Of a stretch of DNA of 64,000 nucleotides, positions 1,796 through 53,193 are shown in pieces. Under the pieces are notes generated by a model that saw only the letters and a list, made by a program, of their open reading frames with translations, was not told where the DNA came from and made no database searches. Location of the stretch: positions 4,016,001 through 4,080,000 of the forward strand of contig NZ_CP097329.1 of the NCBI RefSeq assembly GCF_030323025.1. The letters are read 5' to 3'. Within the stretch, counting starts at the first letter, position 1. Each line of letters begins with the position of its first letter. Made by a program: the position numbers and the translations under genes. Source of the DNA: Pseudanabaena mucicola str. Chao 1806 (GTDB lineage Bacteria; Cyanobacteriota; Cyanobacteriia; Pseudanabaenales; Pseudanabaenaceae).

Positions 1796-1858
1796 TCGCT
1801 CTGCCATCCACATATCGGACAATTCCAATCACTAGACCGATCGCTCTTACTTTTCCCG

Positions 1859-2338
1859 TTAAGTACTAATTTGGGCAAGAAGCCAGCCTTGACAAAGGTC
1901 GCGTAAATTAGACCAGCCACGCCAGAGGACTTGAATATCAATGGGAGACTTACGACGATGCTCAAGATAGCCGCCAAGGAAAGCAATGGATTCGATATTA
2001 ATCCGTTGCCTCCATTTCCTGTTGATCCATACCCTTCCTGTTTAGCTTTGATTTTGCCATAATCTAGATAGGTGGTATCTCCTATGCATAACACCACTTC
2101 TTGTTCTTCCACGGCTTCACTGGTCATTTCACAGTGCGGTTTTATGATCTTGCTAAATTCTGTTTTGCGATTGCCGAAAACTCATAAGCCCTTTTCAATT
2201 CAGACCCACTCTTAAATATCTCGGACAACGCTTTCCCAAATCCTTCACTTATTTTTTGCCGATTGATTACCCTCGGTTGCTGAGTCTCTCATCTCCTAAT
2301 TCACAACTTGCAAAATTCTTGTCCCACCAGTTCATCAT
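1859..2338 (-). pseudogene. IS4/Tn5-type transposase remnant
   Basis: Four blocks of an IS4-family, Tn5-like transposase can be read on the minus strand in different frames. From ATG at 2338 comes an N-terminal block containing ELGDERLSNR. After a frameshift near 2275 there is a block ending in KRAYEF. After a one-base frameshift near 2176 there is a block with the first catalytic Asp (GDTTYLDY) and GNGGNGL. Then, near 2000, the sequence jumps to the C-terminal block LWRGWSNLRDLCQGW, which ends at a stop at 1859. About 200-250 codons of the catalytic core are missing, including the other two DDE residues. A 111-codon open frame at 1792-2127 runs through this wreck, but its second half is out of the transposase frame and should not be called a gene. 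No clear terminal repeats were identified. Confidence 0.8.
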
Positions 2339-2569
2339 TTTTCTTGCCTGCTTTTGTTTGCTTTTTACTACTTTAACTCCTTCTGAACCCTTTACCTGAA
2401 AATCCCTTCTCGTCTACCTTTTAAAGATGCCGTGAAAAGTAAGGACTGCCCCCTTGTACGGAAGTTCTCCAAATTTTTGAATCTTTTAATATTAACGGAC
2501 ATATCGAATGGAAAAAGTAGTGTTAGAGATACACGTTGATGATTCGTTCTATGATCTTTGATGTTGCAG

Positions 2570-9285: not shown

Positions 9286-10743
9286 CTATATAAGTAATAA
9301 TCCAAGAGAATATGTGCTGAATCCCAGCAAAATGCAACTTGGTAATGTCAATAGCCAAGCTAGCAAAAGATTTTTCAAAGTATCGACTTGCACGCCTGAA
9401 CGGTTAGCGACCATTGATCCTGCTATACCTGATGAAAGTATATGGGTAGTACTCACAGGTAATCCGAAATAATCGGCAGCACTAATTGTCGTCATCGTGA
9501 TTAGCTCGGCAGATGCTCCTTGAGCGTAATTCAGATGCTCTTTGCCAATTTTCTCACCAACAGTAACGACAACTCGCTTCCAGCCAATCATTGTTCCTAA
9601 ACCAAGAGCTAGAGCAATAGTGATTTTGATCCAATAGGGGATAAATTTGGTGAGATGATCTAATTGATTGCGATAGTTGGTGATTATTTCTGGATGCTCA
9701 AAATTAGCTAACTGTTGTTGCTTTTCTAATTTGGTAATAGTATTTGCGACAAGATAAATATCATCTCTAACTTGGTGGCGATCGCTTTCGGCAATTTCCA
9801 TCAAACTGTTATTAATTGATAACTTTTTAGCAATAATTTGACACTCATCAACTAGCGATCTCCAGATATTTTCATTCACTTGTCCCTGTGGTTTCAGAAA
9901 TTGACTAAGTTCGTTTCGACTATTCGGAAAAGAGTAATCTTGATTCGTATCAGTAAGAAATTGCGAAGATAAAACGGGAATCACAGAATTTGATGAGGCA
10001 ACTAATTGGGCGATCGATTGAGGACTCGTCTGCAAATTTAAAGAAAAAAAACTAGGTAAAATCGCTACTAAAATTAGCATCATTAGACCCATGCCTTTCT
10101 GTCCATCGTTAGACCCGTGGGCAAAACTCACACCCGAACAGGTCAAAACTAAGACAGCACGCACCCATAGCGAAGGAACATTCTCTTTTGGCGCAGTATA
10201 AAGTTCTTCTTGTCGGATTAGATATTTAGCAGTTAAAAATAAAATTGCGGCTCCACAAAATCCCAGTAATGGTGAAATTACAAGCGAAATCAAGATTTCC
10301 TGCATCTTCAGCCAATTAATACCGTCCCACCAATAGCTATTCGCAGAAGAAAAGGAATTAATTACAGAATTAGCAATCCCAATTCCAGTAATTGAGCCAA
10401 TTAAAGTATGGGTGCTGGATACAGGTAATCCCAAATACCAAGTTCCTAAATTCCAGATAATTGCTGACAGGAGTAAAGCGATCGCCATGACCAAGCTCTG
10501 TGATGTTGAACTATGCACCACCAGATCTACTGGCAACAGCGCAATAATCGCAAAGGCAACTGTCCCACTCGAAGTCAAGACTCCCAATAAATTACAAATT
10601 CCCGATAGGACAACCGCATAGGTTGGCTTTAGAGTATTTGTATAAATAACTGTAGCCACAGCATTAGCCGTGTCATGAAATCCATTCACAAACTCAAAGC
10701 CAATTACTAGAGAGATAGCTAAACCAAAAAATAGATATTCCAT
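9286..10743 (-). CDS. PiT-family inorganic phosphate transporter
   Basis: A 485-aa inner-membrane symporter of the PHO4/PiT family. Both halves carry the duplicated signature: FVNGFHDTANAVA near the N-terminus with GLPVSSTHTLIGS, and a C-terminal GASAELITM with GLPVSTTHILSSG. Around ten hydrophobic segments flank a soluble central loop (about 235-365). It would import phosphate with H+ or Na+ (or metal phosphate). It is not next to a PhoU-like gene. A gap of about 100 bp separates it from mreD, so it may be transcribed separately. Confidence 0.93.
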   Translation of the reverse strand: MEYLFFGLAISLVIGFEFVNGFHDTANAVATVIYTNTLKPTYAVVLSGICNLLGVLTSSGTVAFAIIALLPVDLVVHSSTSQSLVMAIALLLSAIIWNLGTWYLGLPVSSTHTLIGSITGIGIANSVINSFSSANSYWWDGINWLKMQEILISLVISPLLGFCGAAILFLTAKYLIRQEELYTAPKENVPSLWVRAVLVLTCSGVSFAHGSNDGQKGMGLMMLILVAILPSFFSLNLQTSPQSIAQLVASSNSVIPVLSSQFLTDTNQDYSFPNSRNELSQFLKPQGQVNENIWRSLVDECQIIAKKLSINNSLMEIAESDRHQVRDDIYLVANTITKLEKQQQLANFEHPEIITNYRNQLDHLTKFIPYWIKITIALALGLGTMIGWKRVVVTVGEKIGKEHLNYAQGASAELITMTTISAADYFGLPVSTTHILSSGIAGSMVANRSGVQVDTLKNLLLAWLLTLPSCILLGFSTYSLGLLLI

Positions 10744-10846
10744 CTGTTTATTTTAATAGCTCTGATTGGCAAAGGTTTTAGCCTTCTTATGTATGTAATG
10801 GATTGCCACCAACACATTATTCTCAAATCTATGCAAAGCAAAGTTT

Positions 10847-24254: not shown

Positions 24255-24358
24255 TAAGTAGCTAGACATAAGTAAACTAAAAGCCGAGAGTTTTGTTCCG
24301 CCTGCGTAGAAGGCGGAACAAAACTCAGGTTTGGGTTTTAATTAAGTTGAGCTACTTA
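24255..24358. repeat. MITE-like element (family B, copy 1)
   Basis: Terminal inverted repeats (TAAGTAGCT at 24255-24263 and AGCTACTTA at 24350-24358) enclose a hairpin around 24290-24326. Copy 2 at 49824-49915 has the same termini and about 25 identical bases next to the left end, but a shortened centre. It sits between the convergent CruA-like gene and the response regulator and may act as terminator for both. Confidence 0.65.
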
Positions 24359-27662: not shown

Positions 27663-29562
27663 GTTCTAGCCAACGCTCAGTGGATTGATCGATCGCCTCA
27701 GTGAGTTCAGCTAAACGACTTGCAAGTTTCTGAATCTCCGTATGTCCACTGGGAGGATTGTAATAAAGCTTCTTTTCAATTTGCAGCTTTTCCTCTTCCA
27801 TTTCAGGAATTTTCATTTCTAGTTCTTCATACTCACGCTTCTCTTTGTAGGAGAGCTTCACAGATTTGCGATTATCAGGATTTGGTATAGAAGTCTCAGC
27901 AGGAGTAGCTTTTGTAGACTTTTGTTCTTTCGGAGCAATAACCTGTGTCTCTTCTTCCTCTTTCTTGTAATCTAAATAAACGGAATAGTTACCAGGATAT
28001 AAACGTACTTCACCATCCTTCTCAAACGCAAACACCATATCAACAGTGCGATCCAGAAAATAGCGATCATGGGAAACGACAATCACACAACCATTAAAGT
28101 CTTCGAGGTATTCCTCTAAAACAGCAAGGGTTTGGACATCAAGATCGTTAGTTGGTTCATCAAGAATGAGAACATTAGGCGCTTCCATCAAAACCTTGAG
28201 CAAGAATAAACGCCGCTTTTCGCCACCAGAGAGTTTGTTAATCGGCGCATATTGCTGATTGGGAGGGAAAAGGAATCGCTCTAGCATTTGTGAAGCGGTA
28301 ATGATGCTGCCATCGGCAGTTTTGACCAGTTCCGCTACATCTTTAAGGTAATCAATTACGCGCTGACTACCATGCTCCAGTAAATCATCGGAATGTTGAT
28401 CGAAATAGCCAAAATGGATGGTTGTGCCGATTTCCACTGTTCCTGCGTCGGGCTGTAAGCGACCTGTGATCATGTTCATCAAGGTGGATTTGCCAGCGCC
28501 ATTGCTGCCGATGATGCCGATGCGGTCTTCAGGCGTGAAGTTATAGGAGAAATTTTTAATGAGGGTGCGATCGCAATAGGATTTAGAAATGTGATCGAGT
28601 TCCACCACTTTTTTACCAATCCGTCGTCCTGCGGTAGTGATATCTACCTTGGCATTTGCTTGTTTAAATTCCATAGCTTGCAAGGCATGGGCACGATCTA
28701 TCCGAGCTTTCTGTTTAGTACTCCGCGCCTTTGGTCCTTTTTTCAGCCATTCCAGTTCCCGTCGGAGCAATCCTGCGTGTTTGCGTTGCGTACTTAAGGC
28801 AGACTCTTCCGCCTCCGCTTTTTTTTCTAAATAGTAGGAATAATTACCTGAATAGGAATATAGATCGCCACGATCAATTTCAATAATGCGATTGGTGACT
28901 TTATCTAGGAAATAGCGATCATGAGTAATTAGCAATAACGCACCACGATAACGATTGAGATAGCTCTGTAACCACTCCACTGAGAGGGCATCGAGGTGGT
29001 TAGTTGGCTCATCCATCAGCAAGACATCGGGAGATGAGAGTAATGCAGACGCGATCGCAATACGTTTGCGATATCCACCCGAAAGGCTACCAATTTTGGC
29101 TTCTAAATCATCAATCCCCAACTTCGTTAAAACGATTTTGGCATTGGTTTCCAAATCCCACGCTCCCGTTTGATCCATGCGTTCTGACACGCTCGATAAC
29201 TGCGCTAATAAACGCGCCTGATCTCCATGTCCGTGAGATAACTTATCGGAAATTTCTTCATATTCTTTAACTAAAGCCATCTGTTCGCCACTATCCGCAA
29301 ACACTTGTTCTAAAACCGTCCGTTCTTCATTCAAGTCTGGCTGCTGTGGTAAATAGATAATTTTGGCACTGGAATTGACCCATAGCTCCCCACCGTCACT
29401 AGGCTCTAGTCCCGCAATTATTTTGAGCAACGTGGATTTGCCCGATCCATTTGTGCCGATCAATCCTACTTTGTCACCTTCATCAAGGCTAAAGCTAGCA
29501 TCTTTAAGGATTTCCTTAATACCAAAATCTTTTCGGAGCGATCGCAATGTAAAAAGTGCCAT
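27646..29562 (-). CDS. ABC-F ATPase (Uup/EttA-like)
   Basis: A 638-aa protein with two ABC cassettes and no membrane helices. The first has Walker A GTNGSGKST (36-44) and signature LSGGYRKR, the second Walker A GSNGAGKST near 353 and signature LSGGEKRR. Between them is the ABC-F linker (KARSTKQKAR), and a C-terminal coiled coil (about 560-638) resembles that of Uup. ABC-F proteins bind the ribosomal E site and relieve stalling, or act in DNA-related processes for Uup. It is the first gene of a possible three-gene unit. Confidence 0.92.
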   Translation of the reverse strand: MALFTLRSLRKDFGIKEILKDASFSLDEGDKVGLIGTNGSGKSTLLKIIAGLEPSDGGELWVNSSAKIIYLPQQPDLNEERTVLEQVFADSGEQMALVKEYEEISDKLSHGHGDQARLLAQLSSVSERMDQTGAWDLETNAKIVLTKLGIDDLEAKIGSLSGGYRKRIAIASALLSSPDVLLMDEPTNHLDALSVEWLQSYLNRYRGALLLITHDRYFLDKVTNRIIEIDRGDLYSYSGNYSYYLEKKAEAEESALSTQRKHAGLLRRELEWLKKGPKARSTKQKARIDRAHALQAMEFKQANAKVDITTAGRRIGKKVVELDHISKSYCDRTLIKNFSYNFTPEDRIGIIGSNGAGKSTLMNMITGRLQPDAGTVEIGTTIHFGYFDQHSDDLLEHGSQRVIDYLKDVAELVKTADGSIITASQMLERFLFPPNQQYAPINKLSGGEKRRLFLLKVLMEAPNVLILDEPTNDLDVQTLAVLEEYLEDFNGCVIVVSHDRYFLDRTVDMVFAFEKDGEVRLYPGNYSVYLDYKKEEEETQVIAPKEQKSTKATPAETSIPNPDNRKSVKLSYKEKREYEELEMKIPEMEEEKLQIEKKLYYNPPSGHTEIQKLASRLAELTEAIDQSTERWLELAERL

Positions 29563-39405: not shown

Positions 39406-39514
39406 TATATAGCGGTTTTCAAATGAGTGTGTACTCATTTGAAAACAAAAAATCTGTCCCATTAAGAGTTTTGAGTTTTCATTTTGCCGTAGGCAAAATG
39501 AAAACCGCTATATA
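39406..39514. repeat. MITE-like element (family A, copy 1)
   Basis: Perfect 16-bp terminal inverted repeats (39406-39421 and 39499-39514) enclose two internal hairpins, at about 39417-39446 and 39476-39504. An inverted copy lies at 49914-50010 but lacks the far end. No ORF is present. Non-autonomous transposition is a reasonable inference from the structure. Confidence 0.75.
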
Positions 39515-47387: not shown

Positions 47388-47786
47388 CTACAAAAACAAC
47401 TTAGGATCGACATGAAAGAACTTGCCAAGTGCTTGTGCTTGATTTTTGCTGATTTGCCTTTTGCCGTTGACAACTTCTGACACAACGCCGCTTGAGCCAA
47501 TTACATTCACTAGATCGGCTTGCTTTAAATCATTAGATTCTATTAAATGCAAGAGAATATCCAAAGGTGAAGCATTATTCATTGGATAATGTTCATCTTC
47601 ATATTTTTCAACCAAAGTAAGAAGCAACTGTAGAATCCTTTCTTCTTCGGCTGTAGGTTGGGGAATTGCTAACAGTTTTTCAATATTTTGTAGAGCAATT
47701 TCATTTTCAGCATCATTTGTAATTACTTGAGGCTGAATTTCTGCCAGTAAATCCCCATAGGCTTTTTTATTAATAGTAAGGGTCAT
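47388..47786 (-). CDS. higA: Antitoxin HigA-like, XRE type
   Basis: A 132-aa DNA-binding antitoxin with ATG at 47786; a start 21 bp upstream would also be in frame. The C-terminal half is a helix-turn-helix: LIESNDLKQADLVNVIGSSGVVSEVVNG. The stretch VEKYEDEHYP is typical of HigA-type antitoxins. It overlaps the end of the toxin gene by 17 bp, so the order is toxin first. Confidence 0.88.
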   Translation of the reverse strand: MTLTINKKAYGDLLAEIQPQVITNDAENEIALQNIEKLLAIPQPTAEEERILQLLLTLVEKYEDEHYPMNNASPLDILLHLIESNDLKQADLVNVIGSSGVVSEVVNGKRQISKNQAQALGKFFHVDPKLFL

Positions 47787-48069
47787 TTTTCCACCTACCT
47801 GAGTCATACTCAGCGTGAGTTAGGACATATTTGATATAGATAACTTGTCTTTCATAATCAATGCTGACGATTAGGCGATATTTATTACCTTTGATATTGA
47901 AAATAGTGAATCGTCCCGTCGCATCAGCAGACGAATAAGATTTTTTGACATCTTGGATACTTTGCCATGATGCAGATTTTGCGACTTGATGCCAGCTATT
48001 TAAAGGAGTAACTACATCAGCATGGGTTTTCCCAAATTCATCAAGGGTTTTCTTAGAATAAATTCGCAT
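47770..48069 (-). CDS. higB: mRNA interferase toxin HigB
   Basis: A 99-aa RelE-superfamily toxin of the HigB type. Conserved features are WQSIQDVKKSYSSADA, FTIFNIKGNKYRLIVSIDY and YIKYVLTHAEYD, where the last His is usual in the family. HigB degrades mRNA, generally on ribosomes. The partner antitoxin gene follows with an overlap. A tandem 12-bp repeat begins 47 bp upstream of its start and may include the promoter. Confidence 0.92.
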   Translation of the reverse strand: MRIYSKKTLDEFGKTHADVVTPLNSWHQVAKSASWQSIQDVKKSYSSADATGRFTIFNIKGNKYRLIVSIDYERQVIYIKYVLTHAEYDSGRWKNDPYY

Positions 48070-48116
48070 ATTTTATGCCTTTGAGCTTGAAATTTATTTT
48101 TGGTAGTCATAATTTT

Positions 48117-48198
48117 CAGTATTTATTTCAGTATTTATTTCAGTATTTATTTCAGTGTTTATTTCAGTGTTTATTTCAGTGTTTATTTCAGTGTTTAG
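48117..48198. repeat. 12-bp tandem repeat, about seven units
   Basis: Six full copies and one partial copy of a 12-base unit (CAGTATTTATTT in copies 1-3, CAGTGTTTATTT in copies 4-6, partial in 7) run from 48117 to 48198. It lies 47 bp upstream of the higB start. The A/G change divides the array into two blocks. No ORF is implied. Confidence 0.9.
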
Positions 48199-48230
48199 CG
48201 TTGTTATTTTTAGTGTTTTGACTGACCTAT

Positions 48231-48257
48231 AGCATACTCTCATTTTGAGAGTATGCT
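48231..48257. repeat. 12-bp palindrome
   Basis: A perfect stem with arms 48231-48242 and 48246-48257 and a TTT loop, between the higBA promoter region and devA. Confidence 0.6.
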
Positions 48258-48309
48258 GTCAAGTAAAAAGAAAAGGGACTCTATGAGTCCCTTTTCTTTT
48301 TACTTGACA
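48257..48309 (-). terminator. Long perfect hairpin downstream of devA
   Basis: A 25-bp perfect stem (arms 48257-48281 and 48285-48309, loop TAT) with mixed A/T-rich segments. It begins 18 bp after the devA stop on the minus strand. It is unusually long for an intrinsic terminator. Confidence 0.7.
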
Positions 48310-48326
48310 ATGCTATTCCTGTTTAA

Positions 48327-49103
48327 TCACAACATAAATGTACGTGCATCATTAGTTACATCTGTATTCACGACATTATCTGATTCGAGATTGCCGTCTA
48401 CTAGGTTGATAATGCGATCGGCTACATCAAGAATGCGGTTATCGTGAGTCACCATCAAAATTGTGATGTTTTCCTCCTTCGCCATTTTTTGCATCAAAGT
48501 CACCACATCACGCCCCGATTTTTTGTCTAAAGCCGCCGTTGGCTCATCTGCCAGAATTAACTTAGGTCGATTTACCAAAGCACGTGCGATCGCCACCCGT
48601 TGTTTTTGCCCACCCGATAGCGCATGGGGCTTGTAGTCAACCCTTTCTGCTAGCCCCAATTGTCCGAGAATTTCTGCGGCTCGACGTGCAGGGGCAACAT
48701 TATGAAAATCATTGGGATATAGATCCGTTGACATCATTACATTTTGTCTAGCAGTCAAAGAATGGAAGAGATTATGAGCTTGAAAAATAAAACCAATATT
48801 TTTGCGAATTTGCACCAATTTTTTAGGATGCAAGCTCCTTAACTCTTGCCCCAAAACCTTGAGACTCCCCTCTTGAATTGTGCGTAAAGCCCCTATCAAA
48901 GTTAATAACGTCGTCTTACCCGATCCAGAGGGACCTGTCAGAATCACAATTTGCCCAGGGTAGACATCCAAATTGATATCGAACAAAACCTGCTTAAATA
49001 AATCACCTTCACCGTAGTGAAAATTTAAGTTGCGAATTTGAATCGATGCTTCTATATTTTGATTCAAAGAGACTGGCAAAGGATCAGAAATAGTTTCGAG
49101 CAT
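48327..49103 (-). CDS. devA: DevA-family ABC transporter ATPase
   Basis: A 258-aa ABC ATPase. Walker A is TGPSGSGKTT (56-65), the signature is LSGGQKQRVAIARAL and Walker B is LILADEPTAA. The start RNLNFHYGEGDLFKQVLFDINL and the segment FIFQAHNLFHSLTA match DevA, which energises the DevBCA exporter for glycolipids and other lipids through TolC. DevB and DevC partners are not next to it, so it is orphaned in this window. In non-heterocystous cyanobacteria the family has other export roles. Confidence 0.85.
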   Translation of the reverse strand: MLETISDPLPVSLNQNIEASIQIRNLNFHYGEGDLFKQVLFDINLDVYPGQIVILTGPSGSGKTTLLTLIGALRTIQEGSLKVLGQELRSLHPKKLVQIRKNIGFIFQAHNLFHSLTARQNVMMSTDLYPNDFHNVAPARRAAEILGQLGLAERVDYKPHALSGGQKQRVAIARALVNRPKLILADEPTAALDKKSGRDVVTLMQKMAKEENITILMVTHDNRILDVADRIINLVDGNLESDNVVNTDVTNDARTFML

Positions 49104-49243
49104 AGTCTAACCAACCTAAAACGGCAAAGTACAAGATTTATTCAGATTATTTATGAAGCTCTCAGACTATATTAGCTATGATAGGTATATTTATTGCCTG
49201 TCTTCAGCAATCTAATTTGATTATTTATCAAAGGTTCAAATTT

Positions 49244-49789
49244 ATGGCATCACGAACCTTAGTCAAAAAATATTTAGCCCAATGGATGCAAATGGGTAAA
49301 ACCTTGAGTTTGTCTACACAGAATAAACCAGTGCATATCCATAAAATCCTACAGGGCGAGAGGTATTCAACAATTTTCAACAACCTCTGGTTTAAAATTA
49401 GTACGAATCAAGCTCAAGAAGCTCATTTAAGTGGTACTAGTCAAACTATTAGTGACTTACTGAGCAGTCAATGGGAAATTATTGCTTGTGCCCGTTGTAA
49501 CTTGCTTGTCCCAACCATAGGTATCGGTCCCCGCACTCCTGTTTGCTGTCCATGTGATGATTTGCCAAATCATCCTAATCTTGATTTAGTTTCACCTCAT
49601 GTGCCTGTCAAGCTAGCGACACATCTTGATGCTCTATGCGATCGCCTTGCTCAAAATTCAACAGATCAAGAAGATCAAAAGTCTAATGTCATTCCACCTG
49701 ACGCAACGTACAGTTCTGAGGAAGAAGATGCACAGACAATTACCAACCTTAGGAACTCAGTATTAAAACTGGTTAAATCTAAACCCTAG
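49244..49789 (+). CDS. Hypothetical protein with zinc-ribbon-like Cys pairs
   Basis: A 181-aa protein from ATG 49244. The segment CARCNLLVPTIGIG followed by CCPCDDLP has two Cys pairs about 20 residues apart that may bind zinc. A Lys/Arg-rich helical N-terminus and an acidic Ser-rich C-terminus surround it. The protein seems cyanobacterial, but I recognise no function. A pile-up of repeats follows the stop. Confidence 0.6.
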   Translation: MASRTLVKKYLAQWMQMGKTLSLSTQNKPVHIHKILQGERYSTIFNNLWFKISTNQAQEAHLSGTSQTISDLLSSQWEIIACARCNLLVPTIGIGPRTPVCCPCDDLPNHPNLDLVSPHVPVKLATHLDALCDRLAQNSTDQEDQKSNVIPPDATYSSEEEDAQTITNLRNSVLKLVKSKP

Positions 49790-49823
49790 TAATATGGCTT
49801 AGTGGTGCAGAAAACTCAGGTAA

Positions 49824-49915
49824 TAAGTAGCTAGACATAAGTAAACTAAAAACCGAGAGTTTGTTCCGCCCGCGTAAACTCTCGGTTTTGGGTTTTAATT
49901 GAGTTGGGCTACTTA
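49824..49915. repeat. MITE-like element (family B, copy 2)
   Basis: Same termini (49824-49832 and 49907-49915) as copy 1 at 24255-24358, with one mismatch in the right terminus, but the central palindrome is changed: here the arms are CCGAGAGTTT and AAACTCTCGG at about 49852-49885. It touches the family A element that follows. Confidence 0.7.
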
Positions 49916-50010
49916 TAGCGGTTTTCATTTTGCCGTAGGCAAAATGAAAACTCAAAAACCTTATTGGGATTAGTTTTTTGTTTTCAAATGAGTACGCACT
50001 CATTTGAAAA
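49914..50010. repeat. MITE-like element (family A, copy 2, truncated)
   Basis: This is an inverted copy of the element at 39406-39514. Both internal hairpins are present, but the distal 16-bp inverted repeat has been replaced at about 50011 by another repeat. Confidence 0.75.
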
Positions 50011-50041
50011 CTTACTTTTCACGGCATCTTTGAAAAGTAAG
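50011..50041. repeat. Hairpin repeat (family C)
   Basis: Perfect 10-bp arms (50011-50020 and 50032-50041). The left arm and loop, 21 bases in all, are identical in reverse complement to 2423-2443, beside the transposase remnant. The shared segment suggests a mobile or dispersed repeat. Confidence 0.6.
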
Positions 50042-50081
50042 CGCAGCTACCGCCTCCGCTAATCTTTGCAGATGTCGTTGC

Positions 50082-50417
50082 AATGTTAGTAATATGCCTG
50101 ATTGAATGGTATGGGCAGAAATAATGATCGCCGCAGGTGGTTCGACTAATTGGGAATTGGCTTTTATGGGGTTGCCGAGCATAGAGATTACTATTGCTGA
50201 CAATCAAAAAGCGATCGCTGCTGAGCTAGATCGTCAAGGTGTAGTCATCAATCTGGGTTGGCATCAGGATGTGACTATTGAGCAGATTAGTTTCGCATTG
50301 CAAGAGTTGATCGGCGATCGCCCCAAACGCGAAACCATGAGTAAAAAAGGACGAGAATTAGTCGATGGTAACGGAGCAAAGCGCGTTATCTCAAAAATAA
50401 ACAGTATGTCAGCCTAG
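50082..50417 (+). pseudogene. pseG: pseG remnant (C-terminal part)
   Basis: Homology to PseG, the hydrolase that releases UDP from a pseudaminic acid precursor, is seen in EIMIAAGGSTNWELAFMGLPS and NLGWHQDV. The full protein is about 330-350 aa; here only the last third remains. In the same frame the upstream codons at 50082-50102 read NVSNMPD, the usual PseG pattern, and are followed by TGA at 50103-50105 where a Leu codon is expected. An open frame from ATG 50106 covers the rest. The lost part ends at a pile-up of repeats, suggesting repeat-linked deletion. Confidence 0.8.
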
Positions 50418-50607
50418 TTTTGTCGGGTTTTATGGAGTCTAAACGATGACAACTTCCCTCACATATTCACTTACAGAAGATGCTTTGACCCTAGTGCGAC
50501 TTGGTTTTCATAGTGAGCTTTCCCTCTGAAGCCCCAAGAACCTAGCAATAAGCAATTCTTGAAATATGTTAAATTGATGGCAGATTGGTTTCTCAGGAAT
50601 TACCACC

Positions 50608-51273
50608 ATGACGACCTCACCAATACACACAGCCCCTAAAATTGACTACCCAGATAGTGACGGGCAACCAATGGCAGATAATACACAACAATTTCGTTGG
50701 ATCGTTCTTATCAAAGAAAACCTAGAGCTACTCTTTGCAAACGATAGTAAGGTTTTTGTGGCGGGTGATTTGTTGTGGTATCCAGTGGAAGGGAGTCCCG
50801 AAATTCGTGTCGCGCCTGATGTAATGGTGGCTTTTGATCGTCCCAAAGGCGATCGCGGCTCCTATAAACAATGGCTAGAGGGCAACATTGCTCCACAGGT
50901 TGTGTTTGAAATTCTCTCACCAGGTAATCGCCTCAAAGAGATGACCAAAAAGCTACAATTTTATGATCGCCACGGGGTTGAAGAATATTACATCTATGAT
51001 CCTGAGAGTAATGATTTACATGGTTTGTATCGGCAAGACAAACGACTCAATATCATTGAGGATATTAACAACTGGACAAGTCCCCGCTTACAAATTAGGT
51101 TTACGTTAACCGAAGAAACTCTGGAGATATATCGTCCTGACGGTCAAAAATTTTTGACAACCCTTGAGTTAAGCCAGCGATTTGAGCAAGAGCATCAACG
51201 GGCGGAACAAGAGTACCAACGGGCGGAAAGATTATTAGCTCAGTTAAAAGCTTTAGGTGTTGAACCCAATTAG
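50608..51273 (+). CDS. Uma2-family endonuclease-like protein
   Basis: A 221-aa Uma2 protein. The core has D71 in VAPDVMVAF, E101 in VVFEILSP and a Lys at 114-115. A charged coiled-coil tail (about 185-215) with repeated EHQRAEQEYQRAE ends LKALGVEPN. This tail is shared by other Uma2 proteins in the window. It is preceded by decayed pseG and followed by another Uma2 gene 45 bp downstream. Confidence 0.85.
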   Translation: MTTSPIHTAPKIDYPDSDGQPMADNTQQFRWIVLIKENLELLFANDSKVFVAGDLLWYPVEGSPEIRVAPDVMVAFDRPKGDRGSYKQWLEGNIAPQVVFEILSPGNRLKEMTKKLQFYDRHGVEEYYIYDPESNDLHGLYRQDKRLNIIEDINNWTSPRLQIRFTLTEETLEIYRPDGQKFLTTLELSQRFEQEHQRAEQEYQRAERLLAQLKALGVEPN

Positions 51274-51318
51274 ATTTTTTTATTGGCTGTTTTTTGAAGA
51301 ATTAATATAGGGTTAGTC

Positions 51319-51900
51319 ATGACTGTCGCCATCAGATCTGCAAAAATCAATGACACAAACTGCACTATTCAAGGCGTTAGTTGGTTGCAGTTTGAAAGTA
51401 TAGAAGCCGCCTTTTCTAGCGTTGAGGGCGTGAGATTTGTTTATTTGGATGGTGTGTTAGAAATTATGACTTTGAGTCCTGAGCATGAGGAGATTAAAAG
51501 TACAATTGGATTGCTATTAGAAGCATATCTACGACATTCTGGAATTCGTTTTTATAAACGAGGAAGTGCGACTTTAGGTAGTAGGGATTTAGGCGGTCGC
51601 AAAGAGCCTGATGAATCCTATAATTTTAATCTCAAAAAAGATATTCCCGATTTAATTATAGAGGTAGTCTTAACCAGTGGCTATATTAATATCTTAGACT
51701 TGTATGCAAGGATGGGCATTGCTGAAGTTTGGTATTGGGAAGATGGAAAATTAAAGGTCTATGATTTAGAAGAACAAGTTTACAAAAATGTCAAAGCAAG
51801 TCGATTTTTTCCCAATTTAAATTTAAATATTCTTGCAAAATATATCACTTACTACGATCAGTATGAGGCGATCGCTGATTTTATTAAGGAACTTCAGTAA
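51319..51900 (+). CDS. Uma2-family endonuclease-like protein, short subtype
   Basis: A 193-aa Uma2 protein with IQGVSWLQFESIE at the N-terminus, D98 in RKEPDESY, E115 in DLIIEVVL and RMGIAEVWYWED. It lacks the C-terminal coiled-coil tail of the neighbouring longer Uma2 proteins and is closer to the protein at 46668. It is followed by a DUF29 fragment. Confidence 0.82.
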   Translation: MTVAIRSAKINDTNCTIQGVSWLQFESIEAAFSSVEGVRFVYLDGVLEIMTLSPEHEEIKSTIGLLLEAYLRHSGIRFYKRGSATLGSRDLGGRKEPDESYNFNLKKDIPDLIIEVVLTSGYINILDLYARMGIAEVWYWEDGKLKVYDLEEQVYKNVKASRFFPNLNLNILAKYITYYDQYEAIADFIKELQ

Positions 51901-51968
51901 ATCATATCAATATGTAATGGAGAGGTCATGAAAATGTTAACTCAAGAGAAATTTTTATCTAAAACGAT

Positions 51969-52057
51969 CGCAACTTTCCCTCAGCACTTTTCCCGAAAAG
52001 GCGATCGCCAATCTTGAGCAAATATTAGATGAAAATTGGTTTCCTGATGTTAATTAA
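51969..52057 (+). pseudogene. DUF29 C-terminal fragment
   Basis: The sequence is a near-duplicate of the end of the next gene: AIANLEQILDENWFP here, compared with AIANLEQVLDENWFP there, and the upstream 35 bp also match with a few indels. It ends at a stop at 52057. The rest of the gene is absent, so this is the relic of a tandem copy. Confidence 0.8.
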
Positions 52058-52075
52058 TTTTGAGAAATAAACAGC

Positions 52076-52555
52076 ATGATCACCCAAGTAGAAATGGTAT
52101 CGAAAACGTTATATGATTCTGATTACAACCTTTGGGTACTAGAAACAGTTAAACAATTGGAAAAGCGAGAGTTTAGCGCTCTTGATTTGGAACATCTGAT
52201 TGAGGAGGTTACTGATTTGAGTCGGCGCGATAAACGAAAATTAGAAAGTTTACTGACTCGATTAATTGAACACTTGCTAAAATTAAAATATTGGCAATCT
52301 GAAAGAGAGCAAAATTTTGGACATTGGCAAGCTGAAGTGCGTACTTTTCGCAAGCAAATCAATAAAGAACTAAAAGCTAGTCCTAGCTTGAAAGCATATT
52401 GTCAAGAAATTTTTGAAGAATGTTATCAGGATGCGAGAGAGATTGTCAGTGATAGATCGCAACTTCCCCTTGCCACTTTTCCAGAACAGGCGATCGCCAA
52501 TCTTGAGCAAGTATTAGACGAAAATTGGTTCCCTTCAAATGAATTCAACAGATAG
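52076..52555 (+). CDS. DUF29-family protein
   Basis: A 159-aa helical protein of the DUF29 family, abundant in cyanobacteria and of unknown function. Signatures are LYDSDYNLWVLETVKQLE, LDLEHLIEEV and HLLKLKYW. It follows a truncated duplicate of its own 3' end. The stop overlaps the pseH-like start by 17 bp. Confidence 0.9.
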   Translation: MITQVEMVSKTLYDSDYNLWVLETVKQLEKREFSALDLEHLIEEVTDLSRRDKRKLESLLTRLIEHLLKLKYWQSEREQNFGHWQAEVRTFRKQINKELKASPSLKAYCQEIFEECYQDAREIVSDRSQLPLATFPEQAIANLEQVLDENWFPSNEFNR

Positions 52556-53045
52556 ACCTTTAAAATTGAGAAAAGTTAGGCAAGAAGATTGCAAGCTTCT
52601 TTGGAAATGGGCAAATGATCCAGTTGTCCGAAGCTCCTCTTTTACATCTAACTCAATTGCATGGGAAGAGCATCTTAGATGGTTTAATGATAAACTTAAT
52701 TCATCTAATTGTTATCATTTTATTGCTTTTAATAATCAAGATGTACCAATAGGACAAATCAGATTTGATATTGATGAGCAATTACAATCGATTGTTAGCA
52801 TTAGTCTTGCTAGTAATCAGCGTAATCAAGGTTATGGTAAGTTAATACTACAAATGGCAATTAGCGAACTTTTCCAACGTATATCAGTGACTAATATTCA
52901 AGCCTTGATAAAACCTGATAATTTTGCATCAATAAAATTATTTGAAAATGTAGGTTTTAAGAACGTAGGTTTTACTCCAATTATTTCGGTTGTCCCGAAT
53001 ATTTTAGCACTAAAATATATATATGATATATATGAAAGAAGTTGA
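52539..53045 (+). CDS. pseH: GNAT acetyltransferase, PseH-like
   Basis: A 168-aa GCN5-related N-acetyltransferase. RQEDCKLLWKWANDP, EEHLRWF and GYGKLILQMAI, with the acetyl-CoA loop N-x-R-N-Q-G-Y-G, match PseH, which acetylates C4 of UDP-4-amino-4,6-dideoxy-AltNAc in pseudaminic acid synthesis. It overlaps DUF29 at the start and the pseI remnant at the end by 14 bp, supporting membership in the lost pathway. It seems intact but is probably without its partners. Confidence 0.8.
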   Translation: MNSTDRPLKLRKVRQEDCKLLWKWANDPVVRSSSFTSNSIAWEEHLRWFNDKLNSSNCYHFIAFNNQDVPIGQIRFDIDEQLQSIVSISLASNQRNQGYGKLILQMAISELFQRISVTNIQALIKPDNFASIKLFENVGFKNVGFTPIISVVPNILALKYIYDIYERS

Positions 53046-53193
53046 GATTCAAGGGCGAAAGATTGGGGCTAATCATACGCCATTTGTGATTGCGGAGATG
53101 TCGGGCAATCATAATCAATCTCTAGAGAGAGCATTAGAAATTGTGGAAGCGGCAACGCGATTGGGGTGCAGACAGCAGAAGCATTTATGCTAG
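53032..53193 (+). pseudogene. pseI: pseI remnant (N-terminal 53 codons)
   Basis: The start KIGANHTPFVIAEMSGNHNQ is the conserved N-terminus of pseudaminic acid synthase PseI (NeuB family). After codon 45 the match is lost and the frame stops at 53193, so about 300 codons are missing. It overlaps pseH by 14 bp, as in intact clusters. Confidence 0.85.

What the first reader, a model, noticed from the sequence alone, without database searches (positions are those of the whole stretch)
49824..50105. Repeat pile-up at the pseG breakpoint
Three repeat units (family B, a truncated family A and a hairpin C) lie end to end at 49824-50041, directly before the pseG remnant. The pseG N-terminal two thirds are missing exactly here. 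The C-hairpin has a 21-base match next to the transposase remnant at 2423-2443. Recombination or nested insertion between repeats may have made the deletion.
Basis: inference. Interest (0 to 1): 0.52.

Follow-up and report, generated by a model that had tools for sequence, protein, structure and literature searches.

The report
Nested mobile-element scars beside broken pseG
In a Pseudanabaena cyanobacterium, fragments of four mobile DNA elements are packed one inside another where a sugar-biosynthesis gene cluster has been cut short; this is an ordinary but unusually readable record of how jumping DNA erodes surface-sugar genes.

Summary
Window 49798-50079 is a nest of four mobile-element pieces, not three. 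B is a 104-bp MITE-like element (internally shortened here). A is a 105-bp MITE-like element sitting on B's terminal TA and lacking its last 7 bp. C is the exact 30-bp tip of an IS4-type insertion sequence (intact copy elsewhere in the genome; decayed copy at window 1846-2443). pseG homology starts at 50080-50082, so the breakpoint joins IS-D to pseG, not a repeat to pseG. A same-species genome (98-99% identical flanks) has intact pseG, pseB, pseC and pseF: 18,266 bp where the window has 298 bp, with none of A, B or C there. Repeat-repeat recombination is therefore not supported; nested insertion with IS-linked deletion is the best account. A sharp allele switch inside pseG (28 differences in 232 bp, then none in 104) means cassette exchange may also separate the two genomes, so which state came first is open. 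New examples of known kinds; low interest.

The parts
49178..49789 (+). Conserved Pseudanabaena gene of unknown function, the intact left flank
   Evidence: 203 aa; 16 homologous loci in genome contigs, the best 98% identical; no Pfam match
49798..49820 (-). Right terminal tip of IS-D (element lies in minus orientation)
   Evidence: 22 of 23 bases match positions 1-23 of the 1301-bp IS-D of L149; 38.1 bits against a best of 28.8 over 1000 shuffles of the 298-bp region, 991 of which gave any match
49824..49915 (+). Family B MITE-like element, internally shortened (92 of 104 bp), ends TAAGTAGCT / AGCTACTTA
   Evidence: aligned copies; full copy at 24255-24358; fold z -4.6
49914..50011 (+). Family A MITE-like element, lacking its last 7 bp (98 of 105); it starts on B's terminal TA
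   Evidence: aligned copies; full copy at 39408-39512; fold z -9.4
50011..50041 (+). C: 30-bp exact left tip of an IS4-family IS (IS-C), plus one base that completes an 11-pair hairpin with the sequence of the right tip
   Evidence: 30 of 30 identical to the start of G000:C1:1480092-1481597, E 1.4e-7; two-tip pattern found only here in 25 genus genomes
50043..50079 (-). Internal fragment of the IS-D transposase gene, antisense; encodes RHLQRLAEAVAA (IS-D: RHLQGFAEAVAA)
   Evidence: 32 of 37 identical to IS-D positions 1084-1120, collinear with the tip at 49798; found in G017 and G020 at E 1.8e-5 to 1.9e-5
50080..50417 (+). pseG remnant, the last 111 of 344 codons; in-frame TGA at 50103-50105
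   Evidence: TIGR03590 positions 213-279; sister pseG 28175-29209 intact; alignment
50082..50313 (+). Part of the pseG remnant that belongs to a different allele from the sister's
   Evidence: 28 differences in 232 bp, then 0 in 50314-50417 and 5 in 2119 bp
52539..53045 (+). pseH-like gene kept on the right of the break
   Evidence: TIGR03585 69.1 bits, below its cut-off of 93.1; 66.9% identical homologue after pseG in G009
53032..53181 (+). pseI N-terminal remnant: the cluster is cut at this end too
   Evidence: TIGR03586 E 5.7e-9 on 50 aa; homologues after pseG in 7 of 8 fetched relatives' loci
1846..2443 (-).
   Evidence: IS-C 1-448 at 94% and 1356-1506 at 93%
39408..39512 (-). Full-length family A copy, shared with the sister genome
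   Evidence: 96% to the A consensus
24255..24358 (+). Full-length family B copy
   Evidence: 91% to the B consensus

Best explanation
This is a stratified mobile-element nest at the edge of an eroded pseudaminic-acid (pse) cluster. An IS4-like element (IS-D) sat, in minus orientation, just after the conserved gene 49178-49789. MITE B inserted beside its right tip, MITE A inserted on B's terminal TA, and a second IS4-family element (IS-C) inserted in the nest. A deletion starting exactly at IS-C's left tip removed the last 7 bp of A and about 1.06 kb of IS-D. IS-C then shrank to 31 bp, possibly by recombination between the short repeat GAAAAGTAA near its left end and its right tip. A further deletion joined the IS-D transposase gene to the middle of pseG, removing IS-D's other end and the upstream pse genes. 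Shown: the identity, order, orientation and exact edges of every piece, and the intact cluster in a same-species genome. Inferred: the order of events, transposase involvement in the deletions, and that the ancestor resembled the sister.
For: Two separate pieces of one IS-D, same orientation and order, bracket B, A and C; shuffles of the region do not reach either score. The A/B junction shares one TA, and the same A-on-B junction recurs in another genome, G009 (L127). IS-C's tip is cut cleanly and is identical over 30 bp to the intact 1506-bp copy. The sister has intact pseG and pseB/C/F in the 18,266 bp replaced by 298 bp. pseI is truncated as well. Deletions extending stepwise from an IS are documented in experimental evolution (PMC11708052, section read).
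Against: The sharp allele switch at 50313/50314 shows the window is not simply the sister minus 18 kb. No intermediate strain was found. TAGTAATATG occurs only twice in the window, at 49787 and 50087, bracketing the nest (38 of 100,000 simulated left flanks share a 10-mer with pseG), and this model does not explain it. IS-D was not seen elsewhere in the own genome, though only a 171-bp query containing the 37-bp piece was searched there. All 14 deletion-linked IS events in the cited paper involve IS150, not IS4-family elements.
Confidence: 0.55

Rival explanations
1. Cassette exchange. The two genomes differ because homologous recombination in the conserved flanks (gene 49178-49789 on the left, pseG 3' end and Uma2 genes on the right) swapped an 18.5-kb functional pse segment for the 530-bp decayed segment 49784-50313, or the reverse. 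The nest marks an old decay and did not cause the difference between these two genomes.
For: 28 differences in 50082-50313, none in 50314-50417 and 5 in the next 2119 bp. Differences also cluster at the left edge (49743-49783). At least six other relatives have the Wzt-like ABC gene next to the left gene, so the slot is variable.
Against: It moves the decay to another lineage without explaining how it happened there. The sister allele is still the closest of those compared (88.3% over 50082-50321, next 84.2%).
Confidence: 0.33
2. Recombination between dispersed copies of A, B or C deleted the DNA between them and left one hybrid repeat at the joint.
For: A has at least 40 copies in the genome.
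Against: No A, B or C copy in the sister's 18.3 kb. No repeat touches pseG: a 37-bp IS-D piece intervenes. A is cut at an IS tip, not joined to another A.
Confidence: 0.05
3. The clustering is incidental: intergenic and pseudogene DNA accumulates these elements everywhere, and the pseG loss is unrelated.
For: 7 of the 39 other scored A places have a B within about 200 bp, some shared with the sister. The same families are nested at an unrelated place in G009.
Against: The pseG edge is directly joined to IS-D sequence, so at least IS-D took part in the break.
Confidence: 0.07

Closest known systems
Miniature inverted-repeat transposable elements of cyanobacteria (e.g. the 147 MITEs of Anabaena sp. 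90, PMC3542288; Nezha, known here only from a citation in PMC10969869)
   Same: Short, non-coding, hairpin-forming, multi-copy, mostly intergenic, terminal inverted repeats; associated with pseudogenes
   Different: A (105 bp, TATAGCGGTTTTC ends) and B (104 bp, TAAGTAGCT ends) were not matched to any named family; no parent transposase was identified here
IS4-family insertion sequences (PMC2266710)
   Same: IS-C: IS4 transposase above NCBI's cut-off, about 1.5 kb, inverted tips CTTACTTTTC. IS-D: 1301 bp, inverted tips CTTAGTGGTGCAGAAAA, 9-bp target duplication, IS4-like transposase
   Different: IS-D scores below the curated cut-off; in the window only 31 bp of IS-C and 60 bp of IS-D survive at the nest
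IS-adjacent deletions of experimental evolution (PMC11708052)
   Same: Large deletion bounded by IS sequence, no target duplication of the IS at the joint, stepwise extension
   Different: Those involve IS150 and intact IS copies; here only scars remain and the order is inferred

Membership tests
MITE (families A and B) | Short, non-coding, terminal inverted repeats | tested here: met
   A 105 bp with 13-bp ends TATAGCGGTTTTC/GAAAACCGCTATA; B 104 bp with TAAGTAGCT/AGCTACTTA
MITE (families A and B) | Multiple dispersed copies | tested here: met
   40 of 40 scored candidates carry A; 14 rows (13 distinct places) of near-full-length B aligned from own-genome and sister loci and the window
MITE (families A and B) | Defined target (TA) duplicated on insertion | tested here: inconclusive
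   Nearly all full copies end in TA, and A's start shares B's terminal TA; no empty site was compared
MITE (families A and B) | Parent transposase with the same tips | not tested
   No search for an autonomous partner was run; a Tc1/mariner-IS630 type partner is a guess from the TA ends
IS4 family (IS-C) | IS4 transposase | tested here: met
   NF033590 268.2 bits against a cut-off of 160; PF14706 DNA-binding domain
IS4 family (IS-C) | Terminal inverted repeats and about 10-bp target duplication | tested here: inconclusive
   Tips CTTACTTTTC present at both ends of the 1506-bp copy; no matching duplication read beside it
IS4 family (IS-D) | IS4 transposase above the curated cut-off | tested here: not met
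   NF033591 E 2.6e-29 but 102.4 bits against a cut-off of 152; called IS4-like only
IS4 family (IS-D) | Inverted tips and target duplication of 9-10 bp | tested here: met
   L149: tips CTTAGTGGTGCAGAAAA at both ends, GGGCAAGAG on both sides
PseG (functional) | Full-length open reading frame over the family cut-off | tested here: not met
   Positions 213-279 of 280, 49 bits against 153.55, stops inside

The most novel reading that the evidence does not exclude
The decayed, element-filled segment is the older state in this species, and the sister regained a working pseudaminic-acid cluster by homologous recombination that used the surviving pseG tail as its landing flank. Mobile-element scars would then mark a reusable slot for switching surface sugars.
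Probability: 0.2. Interest if true: 0.45.

Novelty: new member of a known kind. Interest (0 to 1): 0.24.

Why it matters
It gives a base-by-base example of how several unrelated mobile elements stack up and erode a surface-glycan locus in a free-living cyanobacterium, with a same-species genome that still has the intact genes. It also warns that a repeat pile-up at a breakpoint need not be what made the break: here the sequence joined to the gene is a short transposase-gene fragment that is easy to miss.

Tried and rejected
Repeat-repeat recombination: rejected because the sister has no copies in the missing interval. C as a third MITE family: rejected; it is an IS tip, and the 31-bp two-tip form occurs once in 25 genus genomes, so the shrunken-IS reading rests on one base plus the hairpin. 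50042-50079 as decayed pseG: my first reading, dropped when it matched IS-D. C as part of an ISKra4-like transposase gene at 1480092 (the name ISKra4 is recalled, from no call): my first reading, dropped because the tip recurs with other left neighbours. Target duplication of IS-D inside pseG, suggested by the repeated TAGTAATATG: not adopted, because native pseG bases lie upstream of the right copy. Structured RNA: no Rfam match in 49000-51000. Promoter- and terminator-like sites were at the shuffled level (2 against 2.0; 1 against 0.9). Papers: a search of the held library for A's tip found no paper with TATAGCGGTTTTC or GAAAACCGCTATA, and the 6 papers holding the shorter TATAGCGGTTT were on unrelated subjects by their titles in the listing; cyanobacteria plus MITE plus Pseudanabaena gave 0 papers. 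Whether other pse genes exist elsewhere in the genome was not searched, apart from pseG.

Full report
What the place is. The window lies in a 4.53-Mb single-contig genome. Its left-flank gene 49178-49789 has 16 homologous loci in the named genome collection, mostly labelled Pseudanabaena, the best at 98% identity in Pseudanabaena sp. M53BS1SP1A06MG (JADBWH010000084.1, L028). A second listing of what appears to be the same genome is marked 'same species' (G041, identical contig number and coordinates).

The repeats. Family A copies align as a 105-bp element with ends TATAGCGGTTTTC/GAAAACCGCTATA; the window copy at 49914-50011 stops 7 bp short. Family B copies align as a 104-bp palindromic element with ends TAAGTAGCT/AGCTACTTA; the window copy is 92 bp, shortened inside. 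A starts on B's terminal TA (CTACT-TA-TAGCGG), so A was inserted on the end of B, or beside it sharing that TA. In the own genome the 218-bp query found A at all 40 scored places, of 321 candidates, and 7 of the 39 other places have a B within about 200 bp. The ranking favours places with both, so this is not an unbiased rate. Adjacent A and B are therefore not special to this locus. Both fold far better than shuffles.

Hairpin C. Thirty of its 31 bases are the exact left tip of an insertion sequence whose intact 1506-bp copy lies at G000:C1:1480092-1481597, with a 91% identical full-length copy in one of the 14 other genomes searched. Its transposase scores above NCBI's cut-off for an IS4 family model. 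The 'transposase remnant' near 2423 is a decayed copy of the same element, 1846-2443. The 31st base makes C a hairpin of left tip plus right tip, which could be what is left after the interior was lost through a 9-bp repeat. That two-tip form was found only here in 25 genus genomes, so this detail is inference.

The missed element. Bases 50043-50079 match, antisense, the transposase gene of a second IS4-like element found in G017 and G020 (32 of 37), and the two translations agree (RHLQRLAEAVAA against RHLQGFAEAVAA). The complete element in G017 is 1301 bp with inverted tips and a 9-bp target duplication. Its right tip is also present at 49798-49820, before B (22 of 23). Both pieces are in the same orientation and order, and 1000 shuffles of the region (991 with any match) never reached either score: 28.8 bits at best against 41.7 and 38.1. 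So B, A and C lie inside one IS-D remnant, which has lost about 1.06 kb from its middle and its other end. Its transposase falls below the curated cut-off (102.4 against 152), so I call it IS4-like only.

The break. pseG homology begins at 50080-50082, after IS-D. The joint is IS-D|pseG, and no repeat touches pseG. The ATG at 50106 follows an in-frame TGA; 111 of 344 codons remain. This remnant is the only PseG match in the genome. pseI is also truncated (50 aa left), so the cluster is eroded on both sides.

The sister. It is collinear to 49783 and again from 50082 to 52536 (with one window-only stretch at 47788-48319), and has 18,266 bp between those points (including pseB, pseC, pseF and the front of an intact pseG) against 298 bp in the window. 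None of A, B, IS-C or IS-D matches in that interval. Of eight loci fetched from relatives, pseB and pseC precede pseG in four (L078, L079, L080, L084); in L081, L082 and L083 the stretch shows pseG without them, and L085 has no pseG match.

Limits. In 50082-50313 the window and the sister differ at 28 of 232 sites; in 50314-50417 at none; in the next 2119 bp at 5. The two genomes therefore carry different pseG alleles up to a sharp switch, and a recombination event separates them. Whether the window lost the cluster in place, or one of the two received its version by exchange, cannot be settled with two genomes. At least six other relatives have the Wzt-like ABC gene beside the left gene, so the slot is variable anyway. 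The 10-mer TAGTAATATG occurs only at 49787 and 50087 in the window; by a first-order simulation 38 of 100,000 random left flanks share any 10-mer with the pseG edge. I have no satisfactory explanation for it.

Verdict. 'Recombination between repeats' is not supported. The parts are ordinary kinds (MITE-like elements, IS4-type scars, IS-linked deletion of the kind described in PMC11708052, whose abstract and one results section I read; the IS4 family from passages and one section of PMC2266710; cyanobacterial MITEs from passages of PMC3542288 and PMC10969869). The value is in how legible the layers are.

Noticed in passing
window 49787-49796 and 50087-50096: TAGTAATATG occurs exactly twice in the 64-kb window, bracketing the nest 300 bp apart; it may be a target duplication, a microhomology or chance.
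   Followed up: partly
window 50313/50314: Abrupt change from 88% to 99.8-100% identity with the sister inside the pseG remnant, a recombination boundary.
   Followed up: partly
window 47788-48319: About 530 bp, including most of a HigB-type toxin gene (47770-48069, minus strand), present in the window and absent from the sister.
   Followed up: no
window about 40438 (sister L028 about 1693-1793): The sister carries an extra 101 bp with a hairpin core that the window lacks, probably another small mobile element.
   Followed up: no
L127 (G009:C307) about 1501-1850: An independent nest of the same kinds: an IS-C-like tip, a very short B-like hairpin and an A-like element starting on B's terminal TA.
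   Followed up: partly
L078 (G013:C253) 9789-10809: pseG of another relative is split into two open frames (PseG positions 1-98 and 117-279), perhaps another decaying copy.
   Followed up: no
window 51966-52045 and 52455-52534: An 80-bp direct repeat (89%), the second copy inside the DUF29 gene; a partial gene duplication shared with the sister.
   Followed up: no
L114 (G000:C1:765072): A truncated Mutator-type transposase fragment runs straight into an IS-C-like tip, with a matching tip-like sequence about 170 bp on: a possible MITE derived from the IS-C group.
   Followed up: no
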